A stretch of 64,000 nt of DNA from Hemerocallis citrina (lineage: Eukaryota; Streptophyta; Magnoliopsida; Asparagales; Asphodelaceae), in contig CM030366.1 in the NCBI GenBank assembly GCA_017893485.1, forward strand, positions 105,807,796 through 105,871,795. The letters are read 5' to 3'. Numbering within the stretch: the stretch's first letter is position 1; each line of letters starts with the position of its first letter. The position numbers were made by a program, and so were the translations under genes. The notes beneath the pieces are model-generated. The model made no database searches, had not been told where the DNA came from, and saw nothing but the letters and a program-made list of their open reading frames with translations. Below are positions 1 to 51,402 of this stretch, one piece after another.

Positions 1-557
1 AACTGATGGGTTGTAATGCTTTGGACAAAAATGTATCCAGTATGCTAACACAAGCTATTCAATAAATTTTGTTCATGTGCATGACGATAACATCGTGGAG
101 ATGATGTATTCTGAGCCTGTATAATAGAACAGTGATCTTTTGACTAACAAATTTCCATATTTTTTTCTTATTACGAATCTAGTAATTCATGCAAGTGTAA
201 TGAGTTACAAAACAAGGGATACGATAACTAATTTCATTACATTATATTAAAATGATCTTTCATATTACTCTTTTGCATATCTCATATCAAGTTATTTTGA
301 ATGTCACATACAAGAATTATACAAAATCACCATTGGAAAAAAAAGAAAATGTCGAATATTAGTTCATATGAACAAGCTTAGGGTATATCACAGTAATACA
401 ACTCCTCATATTGACAAGATTTGCTCGATTCTGATGCTGCTCAGGCTTCTTGTTCCCATAAATGACCAACTTTGCTCTGTAACTGCAGCAGATAAAAAAA
501 CTTCAGCAGTAAATTAATGCAAATTGATTGAACAAACGCCTTTTATAATCTCATTGT

Positions 558-775
558 GAAAAATATTACGAAACAGCTCTTACACTTGTTTTTGGGAAAC
601 TGTTCTCAGAAAACAGTTTTGAGGAAAAAAATAATACCAAACAGCTTTTACACTCTTTTTTCAGAAAACAGTTTTTAGAAAAAATATTACCAAATAGCTT
701 TTACACTCTTTTTTCATAAAACTGTTTTCAAAAAACAGTTTTCAGGAAAAAAATATTACCAAACAGCTTTTACTA
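558..775. repeat. degenerate tandem repeat with hairpins, four copies
   Basis: Four imperfect copies of a unit containing 'attaccaaacagcttttaca' begin near 562, 631, 683 and 750, so the period varies from about 53 to 68 bp. Each unit also carries AAAACTGTTTT-like and AAAACAGTTTT-like segments. At 718-742 these form a perfect 11-bp stem with a 3-base loop. No coding potential is seen. Confidence 0.7.
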
Positions 776-2146: not shown

Positions 2147-3842
2147 TGATGAACTCAAGAATATTCACATTTAGGAGCAATAATTTTAGTGCAATTAGAC
2201 AATCAAATGCTTTATATGTGGTATTTTACTCTTCTTTTCTCTTTTCCATAGGAAACAACCAAAAGCAGCAAAACGAAGCAGATTCCAGACTATACAGACT
2301 GAGAAGATGATATACAGGGAACTGCAGTGCAACAGTCGACTTGCTCTTCATCAGTCGACCGGACAGAGAGATTACTGGGGCTCGGCACAGTCGACTGCCT
2401 CAATATCAGTCGACTTGACTGAGGAATCATGAAGCCACAGATGTCTCAGCATCAGTCGACTCACACCCAACATAAGTCGACTGGTATGCGGCGGAGTGAA
2501 AAGATAAGATGCAGCCGTATCTAGATCCAAATCTATCTAAACCCAGGCTATATGCGAATAATAACTTCTCCAACAAATCAAAGCAAGATACAGGGGATTG
2601 GCAAGAGCACGTGGTTAGCAGATAAGGAAGAAAAGCAGAAAAGAGAAAGAAATAAATCGTCGATCAAAAAAAAGAAGGAAAGAGGAGGACTATCCTGAAA
2701 AAGTGGAAAACCCTAATTCCTGTGCCGTGTTCTATAAATATCAATCAAGAGGCATTATTTTGCTCCTCCTCTCCTCCTTCGCTCTCGCTCCCAACCCCAA
2801 AATCACGAAATTACAAGAGTTTCTGAATCGTCAAGTCATCAACAAAGAGCAGCACTTTATCAGCATAGAAGAAGGAAAAAGGAGATCAAGTACTAAGAAG
2901 AGAACGGCCAGTCGACTGTGTGACAGCCAGCCGACCCATCTGACCGAACTACATCAGTTTATTCCTTCCCTTTCTAGTTCTTTTATGTTAATCATGTATT
3001 CGAACTTGTTAATCAATAAAAGTTTAATTATGTGGAACTAATTTCATAGTTGGGTAGATCGAAACCGTAGTTATGTAATGCTTCTATTCTTCTGGGTGCT
3101 ATTCTGTTACTTATTGATTAAACCTGAGAGTATTGGTGTAGATTTATAATAATCAAACTTGTTTAGAATTCTAAGGGCAGTCGACTGAGGTGACAGCAAG
3201 TCGACTGACATATAGAATCTGAGTTATCAGGTTTGCGTATTATAAATCTGAATCTGTTATATGAGCATATTGAGACGACCCGTATCTCGTGCTCATAACT
3301 TGTAACACAGGAGTCCTTGGGGATTCTTGGTTTAATCAACTTAAAGGATCTAGATCTGATACCAATTTCTAGAACTTTGAGTGTTTGTTCGTTTCCATTG
3401 TTCATATGCTTTCTTCAAGTGCAACTTAGTAGATACCATGCTAAATACTTAAGAAAAGAAACGAATTAGAGTAGATACCATGCCTAATTCTTGGCTTAGG
3501 GAAACATTAACTTTAAGGAGTAGATACCATGCCCTTAAAGGAACAAACATGAGTAACTAGAATAGTAAAGAAGGTGACTTAGCATTACTGACTACAGGTG
3601 GAAATCAAAACCCATCTACTTGATAAATATTTGTGATTCAGAACTTCTTGATATAGTTTTTAGTCTTTTTATTTCTTTAGGTACAACAATTTAAGATCCT
3701 TATTTCTATTTTATTGGTTAGTAAGTTAATTTCTACAATCTCTGTGGGATCGACCCTTTCTATTACTACGCTTCTCCAAACGATTCGTACACTTGCGAGG
3801 TTTTAATTTGTGTCTAGTTTAGATCATCTAGATAGCACAACA
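2147..3842 (+). repeat. Element A 5' LTR
   Basis: 1,696 bp, TG...CA ends. The TATA box is at 2733-2740 and an AATAAA signal at 3015-3020. It carries nine GTCGAC sites, eight inside AGTCGACT, arranged as five pairs (2335/2354, 2390/2409, 2455/2476, 2911 with a decayed partner at 2930, 3180/3200). The motif gtagataccatg occurs three times (3429, 3471, 3520). A 112-codon open frame at 2703-3041 spans the TATA box and is not a credible gene. Confidence 0.95.
2732..2741 (+). promoter_or_regulatory. Element A 5' LTR TATA box
   Basis: TATAAATA in the context ttctataaatatca, preceded by GC-balanced sequence and followed by a CT-rich stretch, as expected of a plant Pol II core promoter. The first three AGTCGACT pairs lie about 260-400 bp upstream. 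The same box is at 10982-10989 in the 3' LTR. Confidence 0.75.
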
Positions 3843-3848
3843 AGTTTT

Positions 3849-3866
3849 TGGCGCCGCTGCCGGGGA
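3849..3866 (+). other. Element A primer binding site (tRNA-Asp type)
   Basis: Six bases after the 5' LTR, TGGCGCCGCTGCCGGGGA matches the complement of the plant tRNA-Asp 3' end with one mismatch (C for T). This is where reverse transcription of the minus strand would start. Confidence 0.85.
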
Positions 3867-3962
3867 TTGTTAGCATTTTAACTTACAAATCAGTAAATCT
3901 TTTCTTTTATTTTCTTTTCTTTTATTAATAAATATTTCTTTTAGGTTACAGGATTTTGGTGG

Positions 3963-5663
3963 ATGCACGGAAGGAGATCACTTCGTCCAGAGCTACTACC
4001 TATTGACGCGGAAACAGAACGCACTTTGTACAGACTAGGAAGGCTGTCTGCGACCAACCAGTCGACTGTCACTAGGAACCAGTCGATTGCACAGAGACCC
4101 AATTCACGAGCAATAATGGCTGAGGAAATACCAAATCGAGTACCAATGCAGGAAAAATTCACACCGAAGAATATTGAGCAACCTTCCTGCATTGCTTATC
4201 AACCTAATGTCACAGGGAATATGTATCTATCTCCCCAATTACTTAGCATGGTTCCCCACTTTAGTGGCAAACCAGACGAAGAACCTCACCTCCATCTGCA
4301 AGACTTCTTTGATCTTTGCAGAACACAAAGTGTCCAAGGACTTACCCCTGAACAAATCAGGTTAATCTTGTTTCCATTCTCCTTAAAACTTAATGCTAAA
4401 CTATGGTATAATTCTTTGGAACCAGGATCAATCAATTCATGGGAGCAATTGGCCACGAAATTCTTGAAAGAATTCTTTCCAGCCCAGAAGACCAAACAAC
4501 TGAAAAGGGAGATTCAACTCTTCCAACAAAAAGATAGAGATTTATTCTTCGAAGCATGGAAGGATTTCAAGAACAAGCTTCTCAAGTGTCCTACACACAA
4601 CATGCCTAAAAATGAACAGGTACAAGCTTTTTATGAGGGTTTAAATGATATTAACAAGGCAATTGTGGATTCAGCTTGCAACGGGATCTTGATGAGGAAA
4701 AGTGGTGAGGAGGCCATCGAACTATTTGAAGAACTTAGCGAGAACTCACAACAATTTTCAACAAGGGGAAGAGGCATTTCTAAAAAACAGGGAGTTTACG
4801 AGATTTCTAGTAGTAATAACATACAATTAGAAATGGCAAACATGAACAAAAAAATTGACATGCTTGTTAATGCAATGACAACAATGGGCAATGCGAAAAA
4901 TCTAACAAAAGAAATTTGTGCAATTTGTTCTCATTGTGATTATACAACTGATACATGTCCCATGTCTTCGTTCACAGATCAGGAGCATGCAAACTATGTG
5001 GGACAAGGAGTGTTTCCACCAAAGAACAACCCATTCTCGAACACATACAACCCAGGGTGGAGGAATCATCCAAATTTCTCATGGAGCAACAATCAAGGCA
5101 CCCAATCTTCACAAGGACATGCACGGAACTTCCAAATGGGAAGTGGGTTTGATAGGCCAGTTCAAGATCAGAAGAAGTTGGATTTTGAATCTACCGTTCT
5201 TCAATTGCTCCAACAACAACATCAAACAAGCAACCAACAAGGGCAAGCAATTCAGAAATTGGAAACTCAAATTGGGCAAATCGCAAAGGAGTTAAGTGAG
5301 AGAAAGGCAGGAGAACTCCCTTCACAAACCATACCAAACCCTAGAGGCCAAGAACAGCTCAAGGCAGTAACAACTCTGAGAAGTGGTAAGACAATTGACA
5401 ACAAGGTTGGAACACACACCGAAGAAGCAGAAACACAACCATCAAAAGTTTTGGGTTCCAACAAGGTAAGTGAAAAAGAAAGAATAGTTTTGCCACCATT
5501 CCCTCAAAGGTTAGTCAAGCAAAAGAAAGAACAACATTTATTTGACATCTTTGAAACTCTCAGGAAGGTAGAAATTAATATCCCCCTACTTGATGCTATT
5601 AAACAAATTCCTTCTTATGCCAAATTTTTGAAAGAATGTTGTACTCACAAAAGAACATTTTAG
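3963..5663 (+). pseudogene. gag: Element A gag (capsid/nucleocapsid), closed by an in-frame TAG
   Basis: 566 codons from the first ATG after the primer binding site. The Athila-type capsid domain spans roughly residues 95-260 (FSGKPDEEPHLHLQDF at the start, then NSWEQLATKFLKEFFP). A cysteine-rich segment near residue 320 (ICAICSHCDYTTDTC) is a degenerate zinc knuckle, and the LRSGK motif typical of Athila gag lies near residue 475. Gag would package the element RNA in cytoplasmic particles. The TAG at 5661-5663 is in the same frame as the protease region that follows, so the usual Gag-Pol fusion is interrupted by a single stop. The N-terminus carries one AGTCGACT pair (4061/4082) that encodes QSTVTRNQSI. 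Confidence 0.9.
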
Positions 5664-6791
5664 GTTAGGGAGGATGTGGCTTTGACAGAGGAAGTGAGTG
5701 CTGTTTTGTTAAGGAAATTACCTCCTAAATTAAAGGACCCAGGTAGTTTTACCATTCCTTGCAGGGTTGGTGAGAACTTCTTTGAAAAGGCACTGCTAGA
5801 CTTGGGGGCAAGCATCAATCTTCTTCTTTACACTGTTTACGAAAAGCTAGGATTGGGAGAACTCAAACCAACATCCATCACTTTGCAGTTGGCTGATCGC
5901 AGCATCAAAAGACCTAGAGGTATTTTGGAAGATGTCCTAGTTCAGGTAAACGATTTCATTTTGCCTGCTGATTTTGTTGTGTTAGATATGGAGGACTCTT
6001 CAATGCCATCTTCTCTACCGATCATTTTAGGTAGGTCCTTTATGAGTACAGCTGATATAAAAATTTGTGTTAGAAAGGGTACTATAAGTATGAAAATAAA
6101 TGGAGAAAAGGTTGAATTTAAAATGTTTGATACATTAAAATTACCACATGATGACCATGAATGCTATAATGTTGATGTGGTACCGGAGATTGTTGATCAA
6201 ACATTTCAGGTACATAGCACTGAACCACTACAAGCTGCAATTACACAGTCTCTAACATTGTCTAATGTTGAACAGGAACACGATGACTGGAGGATAGTAG
6301 AAACAGTACATCACCTTGAAACTCCAAAGTCATATCCAAGTAAAATCACACCTACATTTGAAAATATTGTGACTGATGACACTTGTGTTTCCTCGGACCA
6401 GTCGACTGGTGGCAAGGATAAGTCGACTGTCCCGACTGTTACCAGGATGCCAGATGTGGAGCTGAAGCCGCTGCCTGAACACCTGAAGCACGCATATTTG
6501 GGTGAAAACCAGATGCTATCAGTGATAGTTGCTGCAAACTTGAGTGCACAGGAAGAAGAGAAGTTGCTAAGGGTACTGCGAGAACACAAAGGCGCAATAG
6601 GATGGACCATTGCAGACATCAAGGGAATAAGTCCATCCAAATGCATGCATAAAATACTTCTTGAAGACAACGCAAAACCAAGCAGGGAAGCACAGAGAAG
6701 GCTTAACCCACACATGAAGGAAGTGGTAAGAACAGAGGTCTTGAGGCTATTAGATGTTGGCATCATCTACCCTATCTCAGATAGCAAGTAG
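5664..6791 (+). pseudogene. pol: Element A protease and start of reverse transcriptase
   Basis: Continues the gag frame after the TAG. The aspartic protease active site reads LLDLGASINLL (about 5793-5825), followed by the flap and the ILGRSFM motif near 6030. A linker then carries another AGTCGACT pair (6401/6422, encoding DQSTGGKDKSTV), then the N-terminal RT connection (INPSxCMHKI-like through RRLNPHMKEVV). The frame ends at TAG 6789-6791, where Athila proteins have a tryptophan (SxWVSP), so this is a TGG-to-TAG change. The protease would cleave the polyprotein. Loss of continuity into RT makes this copy a pseudogene. Confidence 0.88.
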
Positions 6792-8060
6792 GTGAGTCCT
6801 ATACATGTGGTGCCTAAGAAAAGTGGAGTCACAGTGGTGAAGAATGAAGAGAATAAGCTCATCCCTACAAGAGTGACAACAGGATGGAGGGTATGCATTG
6901 ACTACAGGAAACTGAATAACGAAACCAGGAAAGATCACTTCCCTCTTCCTTTTATTGATCAAATGTTAGAAAGATTAGCAGGATATAGTCATTATTGTTT
7001 TTTAGATGGTTATAGTGGCTATAATCAAATTGCTATTGCTCCAGAAGATCAAGAAAAAACCACTTTTACATGTCCTTTTGGTACTTTTGCATACAGGAGG
7101 ATGCCCTTTGGATTGTGCAATGCACCAGCTACATTTCAGAGATGCATGATGAGTATATTTTCAGACATAGTGGAAAGGTTCATCGAGGTAGTTATGGATG
7201 ATTTTAGTATTTTTGGATCTTGTTTTGATGAATGCCTTAACCATTTGCAGCTTGTGCTTAAGAGATGTGAAGAATGCAATTTAGTGCTGAATTGGAAAAA
7301 GTGCCATTTTATGGTACAACAAGGTATTGTGTTGGGACATGTGGTGTCAAAAAAAGGCATAAAGGTGGACAAGGTAAAAATTGACATCATATCAAGGCTA
7401 CCCCCTCCCACTACAGTCAAGGGTGTTAGGAGTTTTCTTGGACATGCAGGGTTCTATAGAAGATTTATAAAAGATTTCTCAAAAATCTCCAAACCCCTTT
7501 GTGATTTGTTGGCTAAGGATATTGAGTTTGCATGGACAGAAGAGTGCACAAATACTTTTATTACATTGAAAAATCTTCTCATTTCTGCACCTATTGTCAT
7601 GGCACCAGATTGGAGCCATCCTTTCGAGCTTATGTGTGATGCAAGTGATTATGCTTTAGGAGCTGTTTTAGGACAGAGAATCAATAAGGTACCCCATGTT
7701 ATTTACTATGCTTCTCGAACTTTAAATGATGCACAGCTTAATTATTCCACTACTGAAAAAGAAATGTTAGCTGTTATTTTTGCTGTAGAGAAGTTTAGAT
7801 CATATTTAATTGGTTCTAAAGTTATTGTTTTCACTGACCATGCTGCTTTGAGATATTTGTTTGCTAAAAAGGATGCTAAGCCTAGGTTGATCAGATGGGT
7901 GTTGTTGCTTCAAGAATTTGATCTTGAGATTAGAGACAAGAAAGGAAGTGACAATGTTGTGGCAGATCACATGTCCAGACTACTGCATGAGGAAGAGAGA
8001 ATTGTGCTTCCACTTAATGAAGATTTCCCAGATGAACATTTATTTGAAATAAACATATAA
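6792..8060 (+). pseudogene. pol: Element A reverse transcriptase and RNase H
   Basis: Same frame as the protease. RT fingers and palm are complete: [44 protein letters not shown], and the catalytic VVMDDF with aspartates at about 7197-7202, then VLGHVVS and [16 protein letters not shown]. RNase H follows, with [32 protein letters not shown] and VADHMSRL supplying the D-E-D-D residues. These make cDNA and degrade the RNA template. It ends at TAA 8058-8060, an in-frame stop placed just before another AGTCGACT pair. Apart from the stops, all key residues are present. Confidence 0.9.
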
Positions 8061-9416
8061 CGGGGGCAGTCGACTGGTAACAGAACCAGTCGACTGGTAT
8101 CTCACTGCTCATGTTTTCCATGGTTTGCAGATATTGTAAATTATCTCACTGCTCATGTTTTCCCTCCAGGTATGGCAAGTCAAGAAAGAAAAAGATTGGT
8201 GGCTATGTGCAAACACTATTATTAGGATGATCCTTATTTGTTCAAATTCTGCCCTGATCAAATTATAAGAAGATGTGTGACAGAAGAGGAACAAATGAGT
8301 ATTCTATAACATTGCCACCAATATGCATGTGGAGGACATTTTGGACCAAAAAGAACAGCACTTAAGGTATTACAATCAGGTTTTTACTGGCCTAATGTAT
8401 TCAAAGATGCTTTTTCTTTTTGCAGGACTTGTGACAAATGCCAAAGGACGGGCAACATTTCTTCTAGAAATTAAATGCCACTGCAAAACATTCAAGTAAT
8501 CGAGCTTTTTGATGTGTGGGGAATCGACTTCATGGGTCCCTTTCCTAACTCATTCGGTCATTTATATATTCTTGTGGGTGTGGATTATGTGTCTAAATGG
8601 GTCGAGGCTGTCCCCTAAAAAACTAATGATCACAAAGTTGTTGTCAAGTTTTTGCAGGAGAACATTTTCACTAGGTTTGGTACACCACGGGCAATAATTA
8701 GTGATGGAGGGAGTCACTTCAATAACTTTCCATTTGCTTCTTTGATGAAGAAATATGGGATTACACATAGAGTGGGCACCCCATATCATCCTCAAACCAG
8801 TGGGCAGGTGGAGATTAGCAACAGAGAAATCAAGAGCATTTTGGAAAAGACAGTAAATACAAGGAGAAAGGATTGGTCGCTGCGCTTGAACGATGCATTA
8901 TGGGCTTACCGAACCGCATGCAAGACACCCATTGGCATGTCACCATACCGATTGGTTTTTGGAAAGGCCTGTCATCTGCCAGTGGAGTTGGAACACAAAG
9001 CCTATTGGGCCATCAAAAGGTTCAATTTTGATATGAAACAAGCAGGCGACAAAAGGAGATTACAACTGAATGAGCTTGAAGAGTTGAGGCACGACGCATA
9101 TGAAAATGCAAAATTGTACAAGGAAAGGACCAAGTTGTACCATGATAAACAGCTAGCAAGGAAGGAGTTTTATGAAGGACAGAAGGTATTGTTATACAAC
9201 TCAAGATTAAGACTTTTTCCAGGCAAGCTTATGTCACGATGGTATGGCCCATACATTGTTACAAAAGTCTTTCCACATGGTGCATTGGAGGTTCACAGCA
9301 AAGAAAAAAACCAAACATTCAAGGTGAATGGGCATAGGGCGAAGCTGTACACTGAGATGAGTCTAGAGCCGCACGAGGAAGATGTGAATCTTCAAACCAT
9401 TCAATACATTGCATGA
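8061..9416 (+). pseudogene. pol: Element A integrase
   Basis: Same frame, interrupted by TAG 8223, TAA 8307, TAA 8472 and TAA 8616, all in the N-terminal half. The WFADIVNYL start motif at 8121, an HHCC zinc finger (about 8310-8445, ending CRTCDKCQR), the catalytic D in WGIDFMGPF (near 8520), D in ISDGGSHF (near 8700), E in [11 protein letters not shown] (near 8812) and a C-terminal GPY-type segment [13 protein letters not shown] (near 9235) are all visible. Integrase would insert the cDNA. A 21-bp duplication (atctcactgctcatgttttcc at 8099 and 8143) sits at the RNase H/integrase boundary next to the AGTCGACT pair at 8069/8089. The stretch from 8652 to 9416 is open. Confidence 0.88.
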
Positions 9417-9614
9417 ACTCATCATGTCTAGCTGAAGACAGAAAACACAGCGCTTATTGGGAGGCAACCCAATTTTTCAGGGGAGTATTTACACTCTTTT
9501 CATTTATTCATTTCTTTAGTTATTTCTTTATTTTATTTTCTTTCCTTCAAACTAGTTGGTAACACATGCCTATATTTTAAGTTTTGTGCGAACATTGAGG
9601 ACAATGTTCCATCT

Positions 9615-9628
9615 AAGTTTGGGGGTAT
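9615..9628 (+). other. Upstream copy of the polypurine tract of element A
   Basis: aagtttgggggtat is identical to 10381-10394. Both are preceded by TTGAGGACAA. It could be an internal second plus-strand primer. Confidence 0.55.
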
Positions 9629-10380
9629 TAGTTAGTTACATTTGAAGTCTTTTGATTTTTTTTAGGATAAACAATTTCTTATAAAGTAAGAGGAAGGATA
9701 CTTATTTACTTTAGGATTGTTGAGTTTCATAATGCCTTACAAAACTATATGAGTCATGCGATTATACATAAAAACAATTGTGATGCTTTTTCTAGTGATT
9801 ATTCCCTTGGATCTAGTCTTAAACAGAGTTTAAGTAAATAGAGTAAAAAAAAAGAAAAGAATGTATATATGAATAAAGTCAATCTACTCCAATGTTTTGA
9901 GTGCTTAGTAACTAGGGGTATTCATCACCAATGTTTGCCTTTACGTCAAACGGCAACTTGAAATATGAGTATGCAAAGCACTAAAAGTTTGTGACTTGTT
10001 GAGTAACCGGGTGGATTCATCACAAATGTCTTGCACTCGCGTAAAAAGGCAAGTAACGACTTAAAGAAGAGACTAAAAAAAAAAAAAAAAAAATTCTAGT
10101 TTGCTACTCGGTTTGTAGTAGAGAAAGGGGATAATCAGAGATGGAGTGTTAACTATAATTAATTGCATGACAAGTGTGGTTGAGTTTGGAGTTATGCATA
10201 GACAATTGCACTAGAGAAAGTGGGTATACTTGTTTTTACTTTATTTGCAAATTGTTTATAATTTTGATTGCAAAGTTTTGATGCTTACACAATGAGACAT
10301 TTTCTTGGAGTGATGGGTTGAGACTATTATTTTTTCCCATGTTCATAATTTCACTTTTTGCTTGAGGACAAGCAAAAGCT

Positions 10381-10395
10381 AAGTTTGGGGGTATT
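10381..10395 (+). other. Element A polypurine tract
   Basis: aagtttgggggtatt directly abuts the 3' LTR start at 10396. It would prime plus-strand DNA synthesis. Confidence 0.8.
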
Positions 10396-12091
10396 TGATG
10401 AACTCAAGAATATTCACATTTAGGAGCAATAATCTTAGTGCAATTAGACAATCAGATGCTTTATATGTGATATTTTACTTTCTTTTCTCTTTTCCATAGG
10501 AAACAACCAAAAGCAGCAAAACGAAGCAGATTCCAGACTATACAGACTGAGAAGATGATATACAGGGAATTGCAGTGCAACAGTCGACTTGCTCTTCATC
10601 AGTCGACCGGACAGAGAGATTACTGGGGCTCGGCACAGTCGACTGCCTCAATATCAGTCGACTTGACTGAGGAATCATGAAGCCACAGATGTCTCAGCAT
10701 CAGTCGACTCACACCCAACATAAGTCGACTGGTATGCGGCGGAGTGAAAAGATAAGATGCAGCCGTATCTAGATCCAAATCTATCTAAACCCAGGCTATA
10801 TGCGAATAATAACTTCTCCAACAAATCAAAGCTAGATACAAGGGATTGGCAAGAGCACGTGGTTAGCAGATAAGGAAGAAAAGCAGAAAAGAGATAGAAA
10901 TAAATCGTCGATCAAAAAAAAAGAAGGAAAGAGGAGGACTTTCCTGAAAAAGTGGAACACCATAATTCCTGTGCCGTGTTCTATAAATATCAATCAAGAG
11001 GCATTATTTTGCTCCTCCTCTCCTCCTCTGCTCTCGCTCCCAACCCCAAAATCACGAAATCACAAGAGTTTCTGAATCGTCAAGTCATCAACAAAGAGCA
11101 GCACTTTATTAGCATAGAAGAAGGAAAAAGGAGATCAAGTACTAAGAAGAGAACGGCCAGTCGACTGTGTGACAGCCAGCCGACCCATCTGACCGAACAA
11201 CATCAGCTTATTCCTTCCCTTTCTAGTTCTTTTATGTTAATCATGTATTCGAACTTGTTAATCAATAAAAGTTTAATTATGTGGAACTAATTTCATAGTT
11301 GGGTAGATCGAAACCGTAGTTATGTAATGCTTCTATTCTTCTGGGTGCTATTCTGTTACTTATTGATTAAACCTGAGAGTATTGGTGTAGATTTATAATA
11401 ATCAAACTTGTTCAGAATTCTAAGGGCAGTCGACTGAGGTGACAGCAAGTCGACTGACATATAGAATCTGAGTTATCAGGTTTGCGTATTATAAATCTGA
11501 ATCTGTTATATGAGCATATTGAGACGACCCGTATCTCATGCTCATAACTTGTAACATAGGAGTCCTTGGGGATTCTTGGTTTAATCAACTTAAAGGATCT
11601 AGATCTGATACCAATTTCTAGAACTTTGAGTGTTTGTTCGTTTCCATTGTTCATATGCTTTCTTCAAGTGCAACTTAGTAGATACCATGCTAAATACTTA
11701 AGGAAAGAAACGAATTAGAGTAGATACCATGACTAATTCTTGGCTTAGGGAAACATTAACTTTAAGGAGTAGATACCATGCCCTTAAAGGAACAAACATG
11801 AGTAACTAGAATAGTAAAGAAGGTGACTTAGCATTACTGACTACAGGTGGAAATCAAAACCCAACTACTTGATAAATATTTGTGATTCAGAACTTCTTGA
11901 TATAGTTTTTAGTCTTTTTATTTCTTTAGGTACAACAATTTAAGATCCTTATTTCTATTTTATTGGTTAGTAAGTTAATTTCTACAATCTCTGTGGGATC
12001 GACCCTTGCTATTACTACGCTTCTCCAAACGATTCGTACACTTGCGAGGTTTTAATTTGTGTCTAGTTTAGATCATCTAGATAGCACAACA
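10396..12091 (+). repeat. Element A 3' LTR
   Basis: 1,696 bp, nearly identical to 2147-3842. All eight AGTCGACT octamers and the TATA box (10982-10989) are retained. Most differences are single transitions. The target duplication agttg follows at 12092-12096. Confidence 0.95.
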
Positions 12092-12096
12092 AGTTG

Positions 12097-15750: not shown

Positions 15751-16495
15751 TGAGGTGGGATAAAAATGACCCAAGGCCCGGCCAGGGCCCAGGATTGCTT
15801 CCACTCAATAACACGCCAGCTCGGCACCGGACCGTCACGCCCTCGGAGCCGAGCAGATAACTCGCCCCCGCGAAACCGGCCGCCTCGTTCCGACGATCCG
15901 CCACCACCTTCGGCCTCCGATCCTCGACAGTCCCGTGGTCCCCCCATCAGCCTAGTAAGGGATAAGGATGACCTGGTGCTACCTAAGCCATCCGATCCCC
16001 CCAGAGGCACAGGGACCCCACGATCCGCCATGTCAGCTCCAAAACCACCTAGGGCCTTGCCACGTCAGCCCTAAACCACCTATGGTACTGCCACGTCTGT
16101 CCTAAACACCCTGGGCCTCCTGGCACGTCAGGCCCATGGGCTTTCGGGTCCAGACCCGGCCCCCAAACGGATCTAAACCCGATTGGGATTATCTATAAAT
16201 ACCAGGCCCTCTCCTACATTTACAGGTAATCAATCTTTTTCCACCTAATACCCTAGTTACTGCTACTCCCTTTCAGAGACTAACTAGATCGTCAGAGGGT
16301 CTGCCACCGGGATCAACCCCGGTGTTCCAAGACCGTCTGCAGGTACGCGAGGCGAGGCCACCCAATCCGAGCCGATCCTCTAGCACCCAAGCGAGCCTCC
16401 CGCTCACCGTCCAGCATCGCATCCTTCCACCATTACAAATCGAGTCCGAACTCACACCTGGTGCATCCACACTCCCCCAAAAACAAACCGCATCA
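15751..16495 (+). repeat. Element B 5' LTR
   Basis: 745 bp. The TATA box is at 16194-16201 (atctataaatacc). The R/U5 part carries the GGGTCTGCCACCGGG...CCCCGGTG block, which recurs in degenerate form in the J/K LTR (near 56176) and on the minus strand in the G 3' LTR (near 34400), tying these elements to one lineage. Confidence 0.92.
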
Positions 16496-16498
16496 GGT

Positions 16499-16515
16499 TG
16501 GCACCGTCTGTGGGA
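16499..16515 (+). other. Element B primer binding site
   Basis: TGGCACCGTCTGTGGGA, three bases after the 5' LTR. The related element K has TGGCGCCATCTGTGG at the same place. This class of site is usual in Tat-group elements. I assign it tentatively to a tRNA-Arg without having checked the tRNA. Confidence 0.75.
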
Positions 16516-16588
16516 AATCTATTAATTGTTCGGTGCGGACAACAGCCCGAGCCTCGTCACCAATGGTCTCCCCTCGACCTGCGCTCCT

Positions 16589-19009
16589 ATGGCTCCCAAG
16601 GCCAGGAGAGCAGTCACCTCCGTCCTCCGCCTGAACAGGACTCCTCTTCAGGACGACCTCGGCGGCATACACGGATCCAACAATTTGGGGGTAAACCCCA
16701 GGCCCCAACCGAATGCACAGCATCTCGCCGACTCCGACCTTCGTCAGATCATCCAGGACCGAAGGGCTAATCAAGGAAGGGGAAGGGCCGCTTCTAACTC
16801 GACCCCGAACCGCTCCCGGCCTGCGAACGAGGAAAGGCCATCGGCACTCAGCCGCATTGGCCGAAGACCGACTGCACAACTCGACCATGGCGCGGTCACG
16901 AGAGCCGAGTTCCGCAGCTTCCGGGACGAAATCATGGAGGCTATTCATGGAGCACCAAGGACTGCGACGCTCAACCAACCCCGTCAGATGGAGGAAGGGA
17001 GGAGCTACAGTCGCGAACCAACCCCTCCACCTGAGCGCACTGACAAGGTACTTCGGCGCCTCCTAGAGATGGAGAATCGCCTCGAGCGCATAGGCGACGG
17101 AAATCCGAATCCCAGGCTAGGCCGACGGCCTACCCGACCGCCATTCTCTGCAACCATCTTCGAGGCAGAAGTCCCTCAGAATTTTAGGCCTCCACAGTTC
17201 GAGAACTACAACGGTGAGGGTGATCCAGCTGATCACATGGAGGGCTTCAAGACCCTCATGATGATTCACAGTGCCTTGGATCCACTGCTGTGCCGCGCGT
17301 TCCCTGCCACCCTCCGGGGTCCGGCCAGGGAATGGTTCTCCAAGCTCTCCCCCGGCTCAATCTTCTCGTTCGACCAGCTGGAAGCCAACTTCTTAGCCCA
17401 CTTCGTCACCAGCAGGAAGGCCGAGAAAACAAGCGCGTCCTTGCTTGACCTCCAGCAGAAGGAGGGGGAGTCGCTCCGTGGCATCGTCAAGAGGTTCACT
17501 GCCGAGGCGAGGTCCGTCTCCGCCCTCGACGCCGGGGTCGCCTCAGCCACCTTCCGGCACAATGTCCGGCACAACCAACTGAAGGTCTCCTTGGCGAAGA
17601 AGCCCCCTCTGGACTTCCCCGACCTTCTTAACCGAGTCAAGAAGTACATACGAGCTGAAGAAGCTCTGAACCTGGAGGGCGGTAAAGAAGTGACAGGGAA
17701 GGGCAAACGCAGGGTCGACGAGATCGAACCTGCCAGAAAAGTGGCAAAGGAAGGGGTCGGCATGAAGAGGGTACCCCCGGTCCCTCACTTTGAAAGATAT
17801 ACGCCCCTGATGCAGAACGTGTCCGCCATCCTCTTGGAGGTCGAGGACAAGGGCCTCATCCGGCTACCTCCCCGACCGAGCAATAACAAGAAGCGAGATC
17901 AGCGCTTCTACTGCCGCTTCCATAGGGACCATGGGCACGAAACCGACCAGTGTCGGGCCTTAAAAGACGAGATCGAGGCCCTCATCTCTCGAGGGTACCT
18001 CCGCAAGTTCACAAGAGAAAACCTAAGGGATTGGAAGGATACGAGGAACCGGAGGCCTTCGCCTCTCGCCCGTACTCCGAGCCACCAGCAGGAGCGGGAT
18101 CCCGAGCCCAGCGGAGCCGAACGGCAGGCCATTTTGCATTGCGTCCACAGAGGACCGATGGGGAGGGAGTCCAAAACTTCCCGAAAGGCATTCGTGCGGG
18201 AGGTGAACGCTGTCCAAGATCTCCTTTCGCCCCAGGTACAATTGCTCCCTGTCTCCTTCTCCGGAGAGGATCTAGAGGGCGTCCACCTCCCTCATTGCGA
18301 TGCCCTCGTCATCAATCTCAACATGGAAAATTTTGAAGTTCGCCGCATCCTCGTCGATAACGGCAGCTCGGTCAACATCTTATTTCTTGAAGCCTTCGAG
18401 AATCTCAAACTGCCCCGACACAAGCTCAAGTCGGCCGGGTACACCTTACACGGGTTCTCCGGCATCCCCGTCGTAATAGAAGGAATCGTGACTCTTGATG
18501 TCACAGCGGGCTCGGCTCCCATCATACGAACCGAGTCTATGGACTTCATGGTGGTGAACGTCAATGCGGCGTACAATGCCATTCTCGGCCGACACGGGCT
18601 CTGTTCCCTTCAAGCGTTACCATCGGCCTACCACTTAAAATTAAAATTCCCCACCGAGCAAGGGGTTGGCGTCGTCCGAGGTAACCAGGAGGCAGCATGG
18701 TCCTGCTACATGACCGCCGTCGGAGGGGGCGTCTTCCCCCTCGTTGCCATCAAGATCGGGTCCGAGAGGGATAGTTCCAATCCCGAACCAGTCGACGAGC
18801 TGGAGGAGGTTCCATTCATGGCAACAGACGAGTCGAAGTGGTTCCGAGTGAGCCGCTCGCTCTCCGAAGATCTGAAGTCGGACATAATCAGCTGCATCCA
18901 CCGCAACGTCGACCTCTTTGCCTGGAATCCCTCCGACATGCCCGGAATATCCGAAGACCTGATCATGCATAAGCTAAATGTCAACCCAGGCTCCAAGCCA
19001 GTCGTCTAG
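16589..19009 (+). pseudogene. gag: Element B gag and protease
   Basis: I start at ATG 16589 because it gives MAPKARRAV, which is conserved at the start of gag in element K (57639). The frame is also open upstream to 16526 without an ATG. The capsid domain is at about residues 205-370 (FENYNGEGDPADHMEGF to IRAEEALNL), then a zinc-finger-like YCRFHRDHGHETDQC near residue 445, then an aspartic protease (ILVDNGSSVNILF near nt 18349, and AILGRHGLCSLQALPSAYHLKLKF after it). The frame closes with TAG 19007-19009 just before RT, where the family has a glutamine (VV-Q-K-R), so a CAG-to-TAG change. The frame then continues, so Gag-Pol was one polyprotein. Confidence 0.9.
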
Positions 19010-22000
19010 AAGAGGCACAAATTCGCTCCGGAGAGGCAGCAAGCAGTAAAAGTAGAGGTAGAGAAACTCTTGTCTGCCTAATTCATTCAAGAGGTCAGCT
19101 ATCCAGAGTGGCTGGCAAACATCGTCATGGTGAAGAAGGCGGCCGGGGGCTGGCAGATCTGCAAAGACTTCACAGACCTAAACAAGGCGTGCCCAAAAGA
19201 TCCTTTCCCCCTCCCCAGCATCGATGCCTTGATCGACGCGACCTCGGGACACGAGCTACTGTCCTTCATGGATGCCTTCTTGGGGTACAATCAGATCCGG
19301 ATGTTCCCGTTGGACATTGCAAAGACCTCGTTCGTCACCGACCAGGGTCTTTTCTGTTACCGCGTTATGCCATTCGGGCTGAAAAATGCCGGAGCCACTT
19401 ACCAACGGCTCATGAACCGAATTTTTAAACACCTGATCGACCGCAACATGGAGGTCTATGTCGACGACGTGCTCGTCAAGAGCCAGGAAGGGCCAGACCA
19501 CGTCGCCGACCTCGAGGAAGCCTTCGGAATCCTCCGACGTCACAACATGAGGCTCAACCCGGCCAAGTGCGCCTTCGGTGTCTCCTCAGGAAAATTTCTG
19601 GGGTTTGTCGTCAGCCAGCGCGGCATCGAGGCGAACCCAGACAAGGTCCAGGCCATAATAGACATGGCCCCGCCCCGGAATGTCAAGGAAGTTCAGAGGC
19701 TCACGGGCAGGTTGGCGGCCATCAATCGTTTCCTCTCCAAGTCGGGGGAGAAGTCTCTCCCCTTCTTCAAAGCTTTGCGTGGAAAAGGAGGCTTTGAATG
19801 GGGCACCCATCAGCAAGAGGCCTTCAAACAGCTGAAGCAGTACCTCGCCAACCTTCCTCTCCTCAGCAAACCCGAACCGGGTGAACCGCTATGGCTCTAC
19901 CTATCCGCCTCGGATAGCGCCCTCAGCACTGTCCTCGTCCGAGAAGAGGACGGGGTTCAGAGGCCATCATACTATGTAAGCAAAGTCCTACTCCCCGCCG
20001 AGACGAGATACGCAAAGATAGAAAAAGTGGCCTATGCTCTGATCATGGCAGCTTGGAAACTCCGCCCTTACTTCCAAGCTCACTCCATCCAAGTACTGAC
20101 TGACCAGCCATTAAAAATCGTCCTTCACAAGCCAGAGAACTCCGGCCGCTTGGTCAAGTGCTCAATCAAGCTGAGTCAGTTCGACATCGGCTATCAGCCG
20201 AGGACTACGATCAAAGGTCAGGCCCTGGTCGAGTTCATCACTGAATGCACCATTCTCGAGCCTCCCTATATCGAAGGGTCGGATCCGACCTGGGAAGTCT
20301 ATGTCGACGGATCCTCCTGTGAAACCGGGAGTGGCGCTGGGATCATCCTCCGAGGCCCCGACCAATTCCTCCTTCAATACTCCCTCCGCCTCAACTTTCT
20401 GGCCTCCCACAACGAGGCAGAATACGAGGCCATGATCACCAGAGTGACCCTAGCCCACCGAGCCGGAGCCAAGAAAATTCAGGCCTTCAGTGATTCTCAG
20501 CTCGTGGTCAATCATATCACCGAAGAATACGAGGCTCGCGACGACCAGATGGCGAAGTATTTAGCTATGGTCCAACGACTCCTAGCATCCTTCTGCTGCT
20601 CCACGATCGTTAGGGTCCCCAGGGAGCAGAACGCCCAGGCAGATGCATTATCAAAACTCGCCTCTTCCTCCTTCGACGGTCTCGACCAAACAATACTCAT
20701 CGAAATCCTCTTAAAGCCCAGCATCAATGACCAAGACCAAGAGACGATGTGTGTACAAGGCGGTGCCAGCCCAGACGACTGGACCACCCCCATTCGAAAA
20801 TTCTTAATCAATACCGAGCTTCCTGAAGACCGGGTCGAGGCAAGAAGGGTCAGGATCCGAGCTGAAAGGTTCGTCATGATCAACAATGTCCTCTTCAAAT
20901 GCTCATACACACTGGCAGACGGGAAGCCGTACCTCCGTTGCCTCGCCAGTGACGAAACTAGTTACGCCCTGAGAGAGCTTCATGAGGGGATCGGTGGATG
21001 CCATATGGGGAGCAGATCACTCGCTCGAAAGGCCCTGAATCAGGGGTACTATTGGCCAACCATGCTACAAGACTCCCAGGAACTAGTCAAGAGGTGCAGC
21101 CCGTGCCAGAGGTTTTCCCCTATCAAGAGGCTCCCTCAAGCCAACCTTCGATCCCTGGCTAGTCCCACACCATTCGCCATGTGGGGCATGGACCTGGTGG
21201 GCCCCTTTTCCGTAGCCACCGGACAGAGAAAGTTTCTGATAGTCACCATCGACTATTTCACGAAATGGCTCGAGGCCGAGCCACTGTCCAGCATCACCGA
21301 GCGCCAAGCCCAGCAATTTTTCTGGAAAAACATCATTTGCCGGTTCGGAATCCCACAGGTCCTCATCACGGACAACGGGACCCAATTCGCAGGTCAAAAC
21401 TTCCGAAAATTCTGTGAAGACATCGGCGTCCAGCAACGCTTCTCCGCTATATGCCACCCTCAGTCCAACGGCCAAGCGGAGAACGCGAACAGGCAAATCC
21501 TCGACGGGCTTAAGAAACGCCTCGACAGTTCCCCCAAGGGGCAGTGGGTAGAAGAGCTGCCCAGCGTGCTGTGGGCACACCGGACCACCAAGAGGATCCC
21601 TACGGGAGAGACGCCGTTTAGCTTGACCTACGGGACGGAGGCGGTGATCCCCGTCGAGGTCGGTCTACCTTCCCCCCGGATCATGGCCTTCGACGAAGCA
21701 GACAACTCATCCGGCCTAAGGGCCAACCTGGACATCGTTGCCGAGGTCAGGGAGAAGTCTTCCGTCCGAAGGAGCATCTATCAACAGTGGATCGAGAGAT
21801 TTTACAACAAGAAGGTCCGCCCAACGGACATCAAGGCCGGGGACCTCGTGCTACGCAAGTTGTCCGTCTCCGACCCGACCAAGAAGAGGAAGCTGGCCCC
21901 CAACTGGGAAGGCCCATACAGGGTAGCTGAGGCTATACGCCCCGGCACGTACCGACTGGTAGATATGGAAGGTCGAGCGATCAAGCAACCCTGGAACGCC

Positions 22001-22036
22001 GAGCACCTAATGAAGTTCCTAGAAGAGCGGATATAG
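19010..22036 (+). pseudogene. pol: Element B reverse transcriptase, two RNase H domains and integrase
   Basis: Same frame as gag, with one early TAA at 19079-19081 and then open from 19127 to 22036. RT: FTDLNKACPKDPFPLPSIDALID, FMDAFLGYNQI, RVMPFGLKNAGATYQR, catalytic YVDD near 19459. The gypsy RNase H follows (LYLSASDSALSTVL to LTDQPLKIVL). A second archaeal-type RNase H begins at WEVYVDGSS (about 20290) with NEAEYEAM, FSDSQLVV and NAQADALSKLA. Integrase has the H-H-C-C finger (CSPCQRF), D in GMDLVGPF, D in ITDNGTQF and E in GQAENANR, ending with NWEGPYRV and WNAEHLMKFL. Enzymatic residues look intact. Only the two stops at the PR/RT junction block a full polyprotein. Confidence 0.92.
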
Positions 22037-22681
22037 ATTTCCTGCTTGGCTAGTGTAAATAATGGTTTTTGTAAACTTTCTTATGTAAAAGGCCATTAGT
22101 GCCCCTCTCTATATGTATGGAAGAGATCCCTTTTTGTTAACTCCAAACGCCTCGGTCGGTCCGACCCCATGCTGAACAAAGGGATCGCTTTCTCAAAGCT
22201 GCGGTACCCGAGTCATCACTCCGGTGCCGGCCACCGAGGTCTCGGTAGGTCAGAACCGGCTCCAAGCCAAGGAGTCGCCTTAACGCCCCACGGTGCCCAA
22301 GAGGCCAAACCCGGTACCTATCCCCCACGGATCGACGGGTCCGACCCTCAACTCCACAGACAATCAATTAACAAATTCATCAGAGCAAAGAGTGGAAAGA
22401 AACCCCTTATTCATACTCCCTTATTACTTCCGAAAACGAACAACGACCGTTACAGGACCACTTCACTCATCTAAATAGAAAGAAATTACTGGCTAAGGGA
22501 CCTCTTAGGGCCCCTCGGGTCCGACAGAGGGTAATCCCACTCCGACCGAACGGCTAGGAGCCCTCTCCTCGTCACGGTGGTCCTTGGACTCTGCCAAGGT
22601 CGACACACCGACCACGGAGCTATGGGCGTCAACCGGTCGAACACGCTCTAGCAACAGCAACGCCGAGGGAACCCCCTCCTT
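22037..22681. other. Element B downstream of pol, non-coding
   Basis: Begins AT-rich after the integrase stop, then GC-rich. Short frames on both strands show no family features. It separates pol from the convergent antisense gene, so it probably contains the 3' ends of both transcripts. Confidence 0.5.
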
Positions 22682-23056
22682 TCACCGGCCTCCCGAGGAG
22701 GATCCCGTCCTCGTCCCAGACATACCCAGCATCGTCTTATAACGGTGTATCTCCATCTCCTTCTCCACGATGACGTCACGAAGGAGCCTCTCAGACGAGA
22801 GCCGCTGCACCGACGCACTCGACATGGTGTACCCCAGACCGGCACTTCCGAGGTCCCGATCCACCATTGTCCTCTTCAGCCGGGTCACCTCCGCGCTCAG
22901 AGCCTCGGACTTTTCCTGATAATAGTTAAAGGCGGCATCCTGATCACGGGCCCCCTCGCAGTAGCGGACCAACGTGGCCTCCAGGACCTTGATTTTACTC
23001 CGGAGCCACGCCACGTCGGAGCGATGGGGATCCGCCTCGGGAAGAAGAGCCGTTGC
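22682..23056 (-). CDS. Second antisense coiled-coil ORF or last exon of the antisense gene
   Basis: On the minus strand an open stretch of about 124 codons runs from an acceptor-like CCTTTTAG|G at 23057 to a stop at 22682. It has heptad-rich, charged sequence (LRSKIKVLEATL, KSEALSAEVTRLKRTM, RLLRDVIVEKEMEIHRY), predicted coiled coil. There is no ATG at its 5' end, so it is more likely an exon than a separate gene. About 200 bp with a TATATAAA-like tract near 23150 separates it from the upstream stop at 23262, so either an alternative intron or a second promoter is possible. The function is unknown. Confidence 0.45.
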   Translation of the reverse strand, partial: ATALLPEADPHRSDVAWLRSKIKVLEATLVRYCEGARDQDAAFNYYQEKSEALSAEVTRLKRTMVDRDLGSAGLGYTMSSASVQRLSSERLLRDVIVEKEMEIHRYKTMLGMSGTRTGSSSGGR

Positions 23057-23261
23057 CTAAAAGGAAACCAACCACCACTCAAAACACATCGGCAAAAGGG
23101 TCCGAAAAGATCCGGGATCAAAATACTTGGCCAATCAAAAAATCCTTTTTTATATAAAATAAAATTCCATACTAAAATGCGGTGGCCAGTCCGCGGTCGG
23201 CAAATACAACAAAGAAGAGAAAAAAGACAAAAACAGGGAGGCAAGCAGCCTAGTTCCCCAC

Positions 23262-25499: not shown

Positions 25500-25650
25500 G
25501 CTACCGGAATAAAGCTAAAACTAACCTATGTTGCCTCGGAAAGACGAGCCGGTGCTGCTAATCAAGAGGATGGGCGCCGAGGTGCTTTTGTTTTTCTTTT
25601 GGGGAAGGCAGCGAGAGAGAGATAGGCAAAAACAGGAGAAGAGTGGGGGG

Positions 25651-25660
25651 TATTTATAGA
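25651..25660 (-). promoter_or_regulatory. TATA box of the element B antisense gene
   Basis: On the minus strand tctataaata, followed by CCCCCCACTC and a CT-rich leader, about 155 bp upstream of the ATG at 25499. It is separate from the LTR promoter and points against pol. Equivalent boxes occur in elements G and J. Confidence 0.65.
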
Positions 25661-27107: not shown

Positions 27108-27204
27108 ACTCACCGTCCAGCACCGGCCCCAGAGGCCCCCGGAAAACCTCTCCCGTTCTTCTCCGTGACTAAAAATACTCCTCCACGGCTAACTCTCGCA
27201 TCCC

Positions 27205-27223
27205 CGCAGGAGTGGGGGGCTTG
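27205..27223 (+). other. Element B polypurine tract
   Basis: gcaggagtggggggcttg immediately before the 3' LTR TGAGG. The same gagtggggggctt motif precedes the J/K LTR at 55743-55755. Confidence 0.8.
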
Positions 27224-51383: not shown

Positions 51384-51402
51384 TTTATACTTGCAAACAA
51401 CC
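51361..51402. repeat. Perfect 19-bp inverted repeat at an LTR breakpoint
   Basis: 51361-51379 pairs perfectly with 51384-51402 around a 4-base loop (gtag). The first half is normal LTR sequence, and the second half is its inverse copy, placed where LTR identity ends. Confidence 0.92.

What the first reader, a model, noticed from the sequence alone, without database searches (positions are those of the whole stretch)
2333..11460. Paired AGTCGACT palindromes, 19-21 bp apart, decorate element A
GTCGAC occurs 23 times in element A (about 2.4 expected by chance in 9.9 kb at equal base use), 21 times as the self-complementary octamer AGTCGACT: eight in each LTR and five internally. They come in pairs whose centres are 19-21 bp apart: 2335/2354, 2390/2409, 2455/2476, 2911/2930 (second decayed to GCCGAC), 3180/3200, 4061/4082 (second GTCGAT), 6401/6422 and 8069/8089, plus the 3' LTR copies. 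The spacers between the two halves are unrelated in sequence, so simple duplication of a longer unit does not explain them. The other elements in the window lack the octamer. Two pairs in coding DNA use 21 bp and keep the reading frame (both encode Gln/Lys-Ser-Thr). The spacing is two helical turns. Possible roles: cooperative binding of a host or element protein (three pairs lie 260-400 bp upstream of the TATA box), RNA stem-loops with 11-13 base loops, or self-complementary RNA dimerisation sites. I know of no described Athila feature like it.
Basis: partly seen in the sequence, partly recalled or inferred. Interest (0 to 1): 0.78.

Follow-up and report, generated by a model that had tools for sequence, protein, structure and literature searches.

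The report
Paired binding-site module in plant retrotransposons
In one large monocot genome, unrelated families of jumping genes carry the same paired 8-letter DNA palindrome at a fixed distance, kept while the DNA around it changes, which points to a shared protein docking site whose partner is not yet known.

Summary
Element A has 21 AGTCGACT; shuffles give 0.05. The same pairing fills its 3.78-Gb host genome: 224,687 AGTCGACT-N(0-30)-AGTCGACT matches, 76 for the reversed pattern; 96 of 100 listed lie 18-22 bp apart.

Bearers seen belong to at least three groups: Athila-type Ty3/gypsy, Ty1/copia, and LTR elements with TGTAATACCC..GCGTTACA ends, including a gene-less 0.8-kb TRIM. Of 133 exact octamers in 12 loci, 131 have a partner 17-23 bp away; neighbouring distance windows give 6-8. 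Between diverged families the octamer positions stay 95-96% identical; surrounding ones are mostly 57-80%.

New: mirrored outer boxes, TCnGnnC-AGTCGACT-N(10-14)-AGTCGACT-GnnCnGA. CnG stands on 50 of 102 outer and 6 of 116 inner sides. A second sample agrees (12/32, 3/32), but most of it is related to the first.

Best reading: a dyad-symmetric binding site for a trans-acting dimer or tetramer, serving transcription or anti-silencing. RNA hairpins are not supported. Closest known: the Sirevirus palindromic repeated motif. The factor is unknown.

The parts
2147..3846 (+). 5' LTR of element A (Athila-type Ty3/gypsy), 8 octamers
   Evidence: 98.5% identical to 10396-12095, AGTTG on both sides of the element
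10396..12095 (+). 3' LTR, same 8 octamers
2334..2360 (.). U3 pair 1: AGTCGACT 2334-2341 + AGTCGACC 2353-2360, spacing 19
   Evidence: counterpart pair, some halves decayed, in L034, L035, L036, L038
2389..2415 (.). U3 pair 2: 2389-2396 + 2408-2415, spacing 19; upstream flank ctcggcac
   Evidence: in L038 the first half is gone
2454..2482 (.). U3 pair 3: 2454-2461 + 2475-2482, spacing 21
2732..2739 (+). TATA-like TATAAATA, 250-398 bp downstream of the U3 pairs
   Evidence: word match only
2910..2936 (.). LTR pair after the TATA: 2910-2917 + AGCCGACC 2929-2936 (two mismatches)
   Evidence: second half is AGTCGACC in L036
3179..3206 (.). LTR pair: 3179-3186 + 3199-3206, spacing 20
   Evidence: both octamers kept in L034, L035, L036, L038 while the spacer changes by substitution and by 1-bp indels
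3849..3866 (+). primer-binding-site-like TGGCGCCGCTGCCGGGGA next to the 5' LTR
3945..5660 (+). gag open frame (Retrotrans_gag)
4060..4088 (.). pair in the N-terminal part of gag: 4060-4067 + AGTCGATT 4081-4088, spacing 21
   Evidence: in L036 and L038 the second half is AGTCGACT, in L035 it is AGTTGACT and the first half does not align
6400..6428 (.). pair in the protease-RT linker: 6400-6407 + 6421-6428, spacing 21; absent from L035 as a clean 42-bp gap, multiplied in L036
6792..8057 (+). reverse transcriptase/RNase H frame (RVT_1, RT_RNaseH)
8068..8095 (.). pair between RT/RNase H and integrase frames: 8068-8075 + 8088-8095, spacing 20
   Evidence: both octamers kept in L036 and L038
8619..9413 (+). 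integrase frame (rve, below Pfam's cut-off)
10582..10608 (.). 3' LTR copy of U3 pair 1
10637..10663 (.). 3' LTR copy of U3 pair 2
10702..10730 (.). 3' LTR copy of U3 pair 3
11159..11166 (.). 3' LTR copy of the octamer at 2910 (its decayed partner follows)
11428..11455 (.). 3' LTR copy of pair 3179/3199

Best explanation
Each pair is one composite, dyad-symmetric cis-acting DNA site of about 40-45 bp: outer box TCnG, palindrome (C)AGTCGACT(G), an 18-22 bp centre-to-centre step (two helical turns), second palindrome, mirrored outer box. Shown here: the anatomy, its abundance, its conservation against a changing background, and its presence in unrelated LTR retrotransposons of one monocot genome, including a TRIM without genes. 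Inferred: a sequence-specific protein binds each palindrome as a dimer, two dimers sit on the same face of the helix and touch the outer boxes, and binding at the U3 arrays plus sites along the body raises transcription and/or keeps the copy from being silenced. Because a gene-less element carries it, the protein must act in trans. Families gained sites by convergent selection, partly through short tandem duplication followed by spacer decay. Whether the protein is the host's or is encoded by one of the elements is open.
For: Abundance: 106,585 N12 pairs, reversed control 0; 224,687 N0-30 pairs, control 76; 20,186 triples, control 2. Spacing: 96 of 100 listed at 18-22; 131 of 133 exact octamers with a partner of at most 2 mismatches at 17-23, against 6, 7, 7 and 8 of 133 at 9-15, 24-30, 28-34 and 31-37. 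Conservation: octamers kept in 43-100% of cases by family pair, other 8-mers 15-45%, CG-centred 8-mers 11-40% (12 comparisons, 10 with alignable octamers); per base 95-96% inside, mostly 57-80% outside. CpG positions account for 6 of 45 mismatches in decayed partners. Outer boxes: 50/102 outer, 6/116 inner, p 4e-14; separately in the element-A group (p 1e-4), L001/L005/L034 (2e-3), L037 (5e-3) and copia (8e-7) (criterion chosen on the same data). Second sample 12/32 and 3/32, p 0.016. TRIM: four octamers at 20, 19, 20 bp, TATA-like word about 70 bp downstream.
Against: No factor, binding, expression or methylation datum is available. A transcription-only role does not explain pairs in gag, the protease-RT linker and the RT-integrase spacer. 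In L037 the TATA-like words I found lie before the array, not after it. One copia comparison (L003/L009) kept only 3 of 7 octamers against 0.36 of other 8-mers. The outer box is on both sides of a minority of pairs (10 of 47), and the TRIM shows none (0 of 1 usable outer side, 1 of 4 inner). The second sample is not independent: 9 of its 16 pairs share 23 or more of 32 non-octamer letters with a pair of the first; the other 7 give 6 of 14 outer and 1 of 14 inner, too few to decide. Two of 133 octamers lack a partner. The alignments overlap one another, and BLAST may be drawn to the octamers.
Confidence: 0.7

Rival explanations
1. RNA-level element: each pair folds as an 8-bp stem with a 10-14 base loop, or palindromes pair between RNAs, for packaging, dimerisation or small-RNA production, as suggested for palindrome clusters in maize Sirevirus LTRs.
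For: A pair is necessarily a possible stem-loop. PMC10760457 (passages) reports small RNAs concentrating on palindrome clusters of maize Sireviruses. Sense-strand C>T slightly outnumber G>A (6 to 4), the direction a wobble-tolerant stem would give, but far too few to tell.
Against: A stem needs no fixed sequence, yet the same octamer is used in all bearers seen. Spacer ends do not clearly covary (0.235 against 0.262). Outer boxes are mirrored but separate from the stem.
Confidence: 0.09
2. A minisatellite-like by-product: 20-21 bp units duplicate by slippage and the octamer is what happens to be left, with no function.
For: Some arrays are plain 21-bp tandem repeats (C1:1530037, C1:3397875); TRIM spacers are alike. 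Weak direct-repeat similarity after the octamers (0.297 against 0.249, 12 of 1000 shuffles as high; before them 0.289 against 0.261, 92 of 1000). The block lost or gained in L035 is 42 bp, twice 21.
Against: Pairs, not long arrays, dominate (224,687 against 20,186 triples). All eight octamer positions are kept at 95-96% while spacers fall to about 60%. Outer boxes are mirrored, not repeated in tandem. The same octamer appears in families without BLAST similarity at the sites.
Confidence: 0.07
3. Host-recognition signal: the sites are bound by a host silencing or insulator factor and persist for its sake, not the element's.
For: Sites spread over the body of elements, including coding DNA.
Against: Elements would be selected to lose such sites; instead they are kept between diverged families and multiplied (L036).
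Confidence: 0.08
4. A minute mobile or templated insert (pair of palindromes as ends) that spreads into retrotransposons by an insertion mechanism.
For: Clean 42-bp presence/absence difference between A and L035; pairs sit in variable-length linkers of gag.
Against: Little but the octamers and outer boxes is shared; the spacer, which would be the cargo, differs between families. I saw no target duplication, but made no systematic search. Octamers at corresponding places are kept, not inserted anew.
Confidence: 0.05

Closest known systems
Sirevirus repeated motif (RM) of Ty1/copia LTRs (Bousios et al. 2010, PMC2829016; sections 9 and 19 whole, otherwise found passages)
   Same: Short palindromes in 8-32 copies per element, clustered in the LTR upstream of the TATA box, kept while the LTR diverges; some further copies near the ENV gene; the grape RM CGGTCGACCG even contains GTCGAC. 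The copia bearers here (L009, L018) have Sirevirus-like traits (624-aa gag with central CCHC in L018; junction CA/CTTGG-TATCAGAGC, near the described CA/ATTGG-TATCAGAGC).
   Different: RMs were reported as absent from the other copia elements studied and with a CGG-CCG core (Tnd-1 excepted). Here the palindrome lacks CGG-CCG, stands in pairs at 18-22 bp with mirrored outer boxes, and is shared with Ty3/gypsy and TRIM elements. No pair spacing is mentioned in what I read.
VANC target motifs in Arabidopsis VANDAL transposons (Hosaka et al. 2017, PMC5735166, passages; PMC10398659, passages)
   Same: Short motifs accumulated by tandem duplication in related and even unrelated TEs (the VANC6 motif also in AT9TSD1), bound by a TE-encoded protein that strips methylation over the whole element.
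   Different: VANC motifs (YAGTATTAY; AGTTGTCC) are not paired palindromes, lie in non-coding regions of VANDALs, and have a known protein; here it is LTR retrotransposons, coding sites too, and no protein known.
Maize Sirevirus palindrome CACCGGACNNNGTCCGGTG also found in Helitrons (PMC10760457; passages)
   Same: One palindrome abundant in more than one TE class of a genome.
   Different: Discussed there as RNA secondary structure and small-RNA source; nothing on pairing in the passages read.

Membership tests
Sirevirus repeated motif (RM) | palindromic motif, at least 8 copies per element | tested here: met
   element A: 21 exact octamers, 16 in LTRs
Sirevirus repeated motif (RM) | clustered in the LTR upstream of the TATA box | tested here: met
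   A: 2334-2482, TATA-like 2732; L036 (reverse strand): 160-318, TATA-like 550; L049: 418-484, TATA-like 553. Against: in L037 the TATA-like words precede the array, and no such word was found in the LTR of L035
Sirevirus repeated motif (RM) | CGG-CCG core | tested here: not met
   AGTCGACT has none; Tnd-1's RM also lacks it
Sirevirus repeated motif (RM) | confined to Sireviruses among the elements studied there | tested here: not met
   present in Ty3/gypsy gag/RT-bearing elements and a TRIM
VANC-type anti-silencing target | motif in tandem repeats in non-coding TE DNA | tested here: inconclusive
   pairs dominate, 20,186 triples; coding sites too
VANC-type anti-silencing target | cognate TE-encoded protein that binds it and removes methylation | not testable with these tools
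   no binding or methylation data; no search of the genome for candidate proteins was made
Athila lineage (element A) | Ty3/gypsy gag-protease-RT-RNase H-integrase order | tested here: met
   Retrotrans_gag, Asp_protease_2 (below cut-off), RVT_1/RT_RNaseH, rve (below cut-off) in order
Athila lineage (element A) | groups with named Athila references | not tested
Sirevirus lineage (L009, L018) | large copia gag with central CCHC and coiled coil; CA/ATTGG-TATCAGAGC junction | tested here: inconclusive
   L018 gag 624 aa, CCHC at 291-306; junction CA/CTTGG-TATCAGAGC, one base off; coiled coil and multiple PPTs not tested

The most novel reading that the evidence does not exclude
A retrotransposon 'regulon': one trans-acting factor, perhaps encoded by one of the elements or a domesticated transposase, works across superfamilies through a shared paired-palindrome code written into LTRs and gene bodies, so that Ty1/copia, Ty3/gypsy and gene-less TRIMs are all activated or shielded from silencing together. 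It would be a VANC-like system for retrotransposons with a two-dimer grammar.
Probability: 0.35. Interest if true: 0.9.

Novelty: new variant of a known kind. Interest (0 to 1): 0.78.

Why it matters
If one protein recognises over two hundred thousand sites spread over unrelated retrotransposons, it would show how selfish elements of different descent converge on a common control signal. It makes the question of what switches on or protects LTR retrotransposons in large plant genomes directly testable: the site is sharply defined, the TRIM is a natural minimal reporter, and the protein can be fished with a 45-bp probe.

Tried and rejected
RNA hairpin reading: spacer-end covariation (31 non-redundant spacers out of 68 of length 12 typed from the listings; pair position 2 reached p 0.04, positions 1, 3 and 4 did not), inverted similarity within spacers (51 non-redundant pairs of 86), sense-strand asymmetry (one search gave 5 C>T and 5 G>A with one family in the wrong orientation; with it turned gives 6 and 4). 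None supports it clearly; numbers are small.

Plain tandem-duplication reading: kept as a route of gain, rejected as the whole story.

'Athila only' and 'this window only': rejected.

'All LTR retrotransposons here carry it': rejected. The gypsy element at about 15.7-27.5 kb of the window has RVT_1, RVT_3 and rve but no octamer. Of 20 chosen-by-coordinate 10-kb loci 2 (L009, L018) hold octamers. Of the 32 open frames of 200 aa or more in the other 18 loci I scanned 18: 5 loci gave retroelement domains (L011, L012, L016, L017, L023; RVT_1 alone in L011 and L017 could be a LINE), and L013, L019 and L022 gave Transposase_28.

Tat-type label for L001/L005/L034: in my notes and in the script I called these 'Tat-like' because of an integrase-like frame in L001. 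One search shows that the octamer-bearing element starts at TGTAATACCC inside that frame, and Pfam gave no hit for the frame; the label is withdrawn. They share the LTR start with the TRIM and the end type with L037 and the TRIM, and I count these three families as one group.

Controls that failed: a reversed-octamer control for pairing hit 52 of 133, because two-mismatch matches include the shifted partner itself; I replaced it by other distance windows (the windows 82-88 and 150-156 gave 30 and 25 of 133, as expected from the arrays). In one search a spacer-only relatedness filter with 45% mismatches was so lax that it left 2 pairs (outer 1/4, inner 1/4); one search used flanks too: at a limit of 19 of 32 letters 3 pairs are left (2/6 and 0/6), at 17 none.

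Other species: of 531 and 276 gag relatives the 120 + 120 listed were checked; 3 have QST pairs spaced 6-8 residues (one shuffle of each protein gave 1), all Orobanche and unlike the octamer arrays by their context, and none has SRL or VD pairs. This says only that coding pairs are not widespread in those proteins.

Viral contigs: 10 hits, which I judge compatible with chance (no calculation, collection size in bases not known); I looked at the octamer counts of all ten and at stretches of three.

Papers: searches listed no description of AGTCGACT pairs; of their hits I read only the four papers named (passages, or sections where stated). The library lacks most subscription journals. Bousios et al. 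2016 on maize Sirevirus palindromes was not seen, only cited in PMC10760457.


Full report
WHAT WAS CLAIMED.

One search finds 21 octamers, all between 2334 and 11455. Dinucleotide shuffles give 0.048 on average and at most 2 in 500. The element spans 2147-12095; its LTRs are 98.5% identical and it is flanked by AGTTG on both sides. Eight octamers lie in each LTR and five inside. Pfam finds Retrotrans_gag, an aspartic protease below cut-off, RVT_1 with RNase H, and an integrase core below cut-off, so it is a Ty3/gypsy element. The name Athila was not tested against a reference.

IT IS GENOME-WIDE. The window lies in an unnamed 3.78-Gb genome. A HERK1-like receptor kinase gene of that genome has monocots as its best named relatives (Typha 69%, Ananas 68%, Asparagus 72% over 92% of the query), so the host is a monocot. 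Its genome holds 106,585 AGTCGACT-N12-AGTCGACT (reversed pattern: 0), 224,687 with spacer 0-30 (reversed: 76) and 20,186 triples with spacers 8-16 (reversed: 2). The tool lists only the first places, all on contig C1. Of the 100 listed, 96 are 18-22 bp apart: 1 at 18, 3 at 19, 45 at 20, 35 at 21, 12 at 22, and 4 further apart. In 20 10-kb loci taken at preset coordinates on ten contigs the octamer occurs in 2 (24 copies).

WHO CARRIES IT. Element-A relatives (L034 in part, L035, L036, L038) match it at about 73-89% in long alignments. L009 and L018 are Ty1/copia (Retrotran_gag_2, gag_pre-integrs, RVT_2); L003 and L030-L033 are their relatives by BLAST. L037 is an element with a gag-type CCHC protein, no pol seen between its LTRs of 2.5 kb, which are 99.2% identical. 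L001, L005 and the middle of L034 form another family. L049 is a TRIM-type element: LTRs of 290 bp, 99.7% identical, TGGTATCAGAGC after the 5' LTR, TAAAC on both sides, no coding room. The last three families share LTR ends of the type TGTAATACCC..GCGTTACA in what could be read of them, so I count three groups, not five. At E 1e-15 and over 150 bp, BLAST finds no similarity between the three groups at the sites (the TRIM was not in that comparison). Other LTR elements of the same genome lack the octamer in the stretches seen, including the gypsy element at about 15.7-27.5 kb of the window and the copia in L023.

PAIRING IS NEARLY OBLIGATE. In 12 loci 131 of 133 exact octamers have a partner with at most two mismatches 17-23 bp away; windows of the same width at 9-15, 24-30, 28-34 and 31-37 bp give 6, 7, 7 and 8 of 133. 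These 12 loci were mostly picked because they hold pairs. Pairs in the LTR arrays seen recur at steps of about 55-78 bp, two to five pairs per array.

CONSERVATION. Where families diverge, octamers stay. One search shows this letter by letter: at 3179/3199, for example, both octamers are intact in four relatives while the spacer changes by substitution and by 1-bp indels. One search gives, for family pairs, octamers kept / other 8-mers kept / CG-centred 8-mers kept: A-L038 15/21, 0.45, 0.36; A-L036 21/21, 0.36, 0.27; A-L035 12/16, 0.30, 0.22; A-L034 12/16, 0.23, 0.24; L036-L035 14/17, 0.21, 0.16; L038-L036 10/12, 0.41, 0.18; L009-L018 8/9, 0.15, 0.11; L003-L009 3/7, 0.36, 0.40; L003-L018 5/7, 0.15, 0.14; L005-L001 7/7, 0.32, 0.30; L001-L037 and L005-L037 gave no alignable octamer. 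averages 170 octamer observations from 14 family pairs: every octamer position 95-96% identical, neighbours mostly 57-80%, with a second rise at the partner. These observations overlap and are not independent. CpG words normally decay fast in methylated transposons (recalled general knowledge), which makes the result stronger.

A NEW PART: OUTER BOXES. Tabulating 54 non-redundant pairs (49 and 45 usable outer flanks) shows T-7, C-6 and G-4 enriched on both outer sides, in mirror image, and not on the inner sides. With the criterion C at -6 and G at -4, chosen on these same data: 50 of 102 outer and 6 of 116 inner sides (Fisher 3.6e-14). By set: element-A group 16/41 and 2/42; L001/L005/L034 11/19 and 2/20; L037 7/12 and 0/12; copia 16/29 and 1/38; TRIM 0/1 and 1/4. 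Agreement of four separate sets is the main support. The criterion was then applied unchanged to 16 pairs whose flanks I had not seen, picked from the listing for differing spacers: 12/32 and 3/32, p 0.016. But 9 of these 16 share 23 or more of 32 non-octamer letters with a pair of the first set, so they are probably relatives; the other 7 give 6/14 and 1/14, too few to decide. The box is on both sides in 10 of 47 pairs. If right, this makes the pair a single dyad-symmetric unit and not two copies in tandem. A genome-wide count would settle it but the search tool did not complete.

WHERE IN THE ELEMENT. In A and L036 the array lies upstream of a TATA-like word; in the TRIM four octamers lie about 70 bp before one; in L037 the TATA-like words found precede the array. 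Further pairs lie later in the LTR, in gag, in the protease-RT linker and between RT and integrase. The copia has them in the LTR (before the primer-binding site), in the C-terminal part of gag (SRL repeated) and after the integrase (K/QST repeated). In gag they occupy stretches whose length varies between relatives.

HOW IT PROBABLY ARISES AND WORKS. Arrays such as C1:1530037 are 21-bp tandem repeats with diverging spacers, there is weak direct-repeat similarity overall, and A and L035 differ by a clean 42-bp block holding a pair. So gain by short duplication, followed by selection for octamers, step and outer boxes, is likely (inferred). A protein dimer on each palindrome and two dimers on one face of the helix fit the two-turn step (inferred). 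Sites over the whole element recall VANC anti-silencing, whose effect spreads over the element (PMC5735166 and PMC10398659, passages); sites before the TATA recall the Sirevirus repeated motif (PMC2829016, sections 9 and 19). Both roles may be combined. No function was tested.

NOVELTY. Palindromic repeated motifs in LTRs are known from Sireviruses, and shared target motifs from VANDALs. New are the near-obligate pair, the mirrored outer boxes, and the sharing between Ty1/copia, Ty3/gypsy and a TRIM. In the nine searches of the open library listed in Tried and rejected I saw no description of it.

Noticed in passing
L049:392-1191 (C1:3775300-3776799): A complete TRIM-type element with four octamers per LTR; its surroundings look transposase-like to my eye (not tested). 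Similar doublets about 490-520 bp apart appear in the listing.
   Followed up: partly
window 15751-27523: A second, larger Ty3/gypsy element with RVT_3 (extra RNase H) and LTR-like repeats 97% identical over 300 bp, without any octamer.
   Followed up: partly
window 597-773: Four imperfect copies of a 55-bp unit (AAACTGTTTTCA..) left of the element.
   Followed up: no
window 44561-51802: Long direct repeats of 90-96% about 4.9-5.0 kb apart, one with a further copy 1.07 kb on.
   Followed up: no
L042 (IMGVR_UViG_3300021560_000070): A viral-contig stretch with 15 AGTCGACT in 2.4 kb, often as TAGTCGACTA, without a fixed pair step (18-190 bp apart); looks unrelated.
   Followed up: partly
L036:5640-5740 (minus strand): The pair of the protease-RT linker is multiplied relative to element A, with differing spacers.
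   Followed up: partly
L034:455-2125: An LTR-length stretch of the element-A group, apparently standing alone inside another octamer-bearing family.
   Followed up: partly
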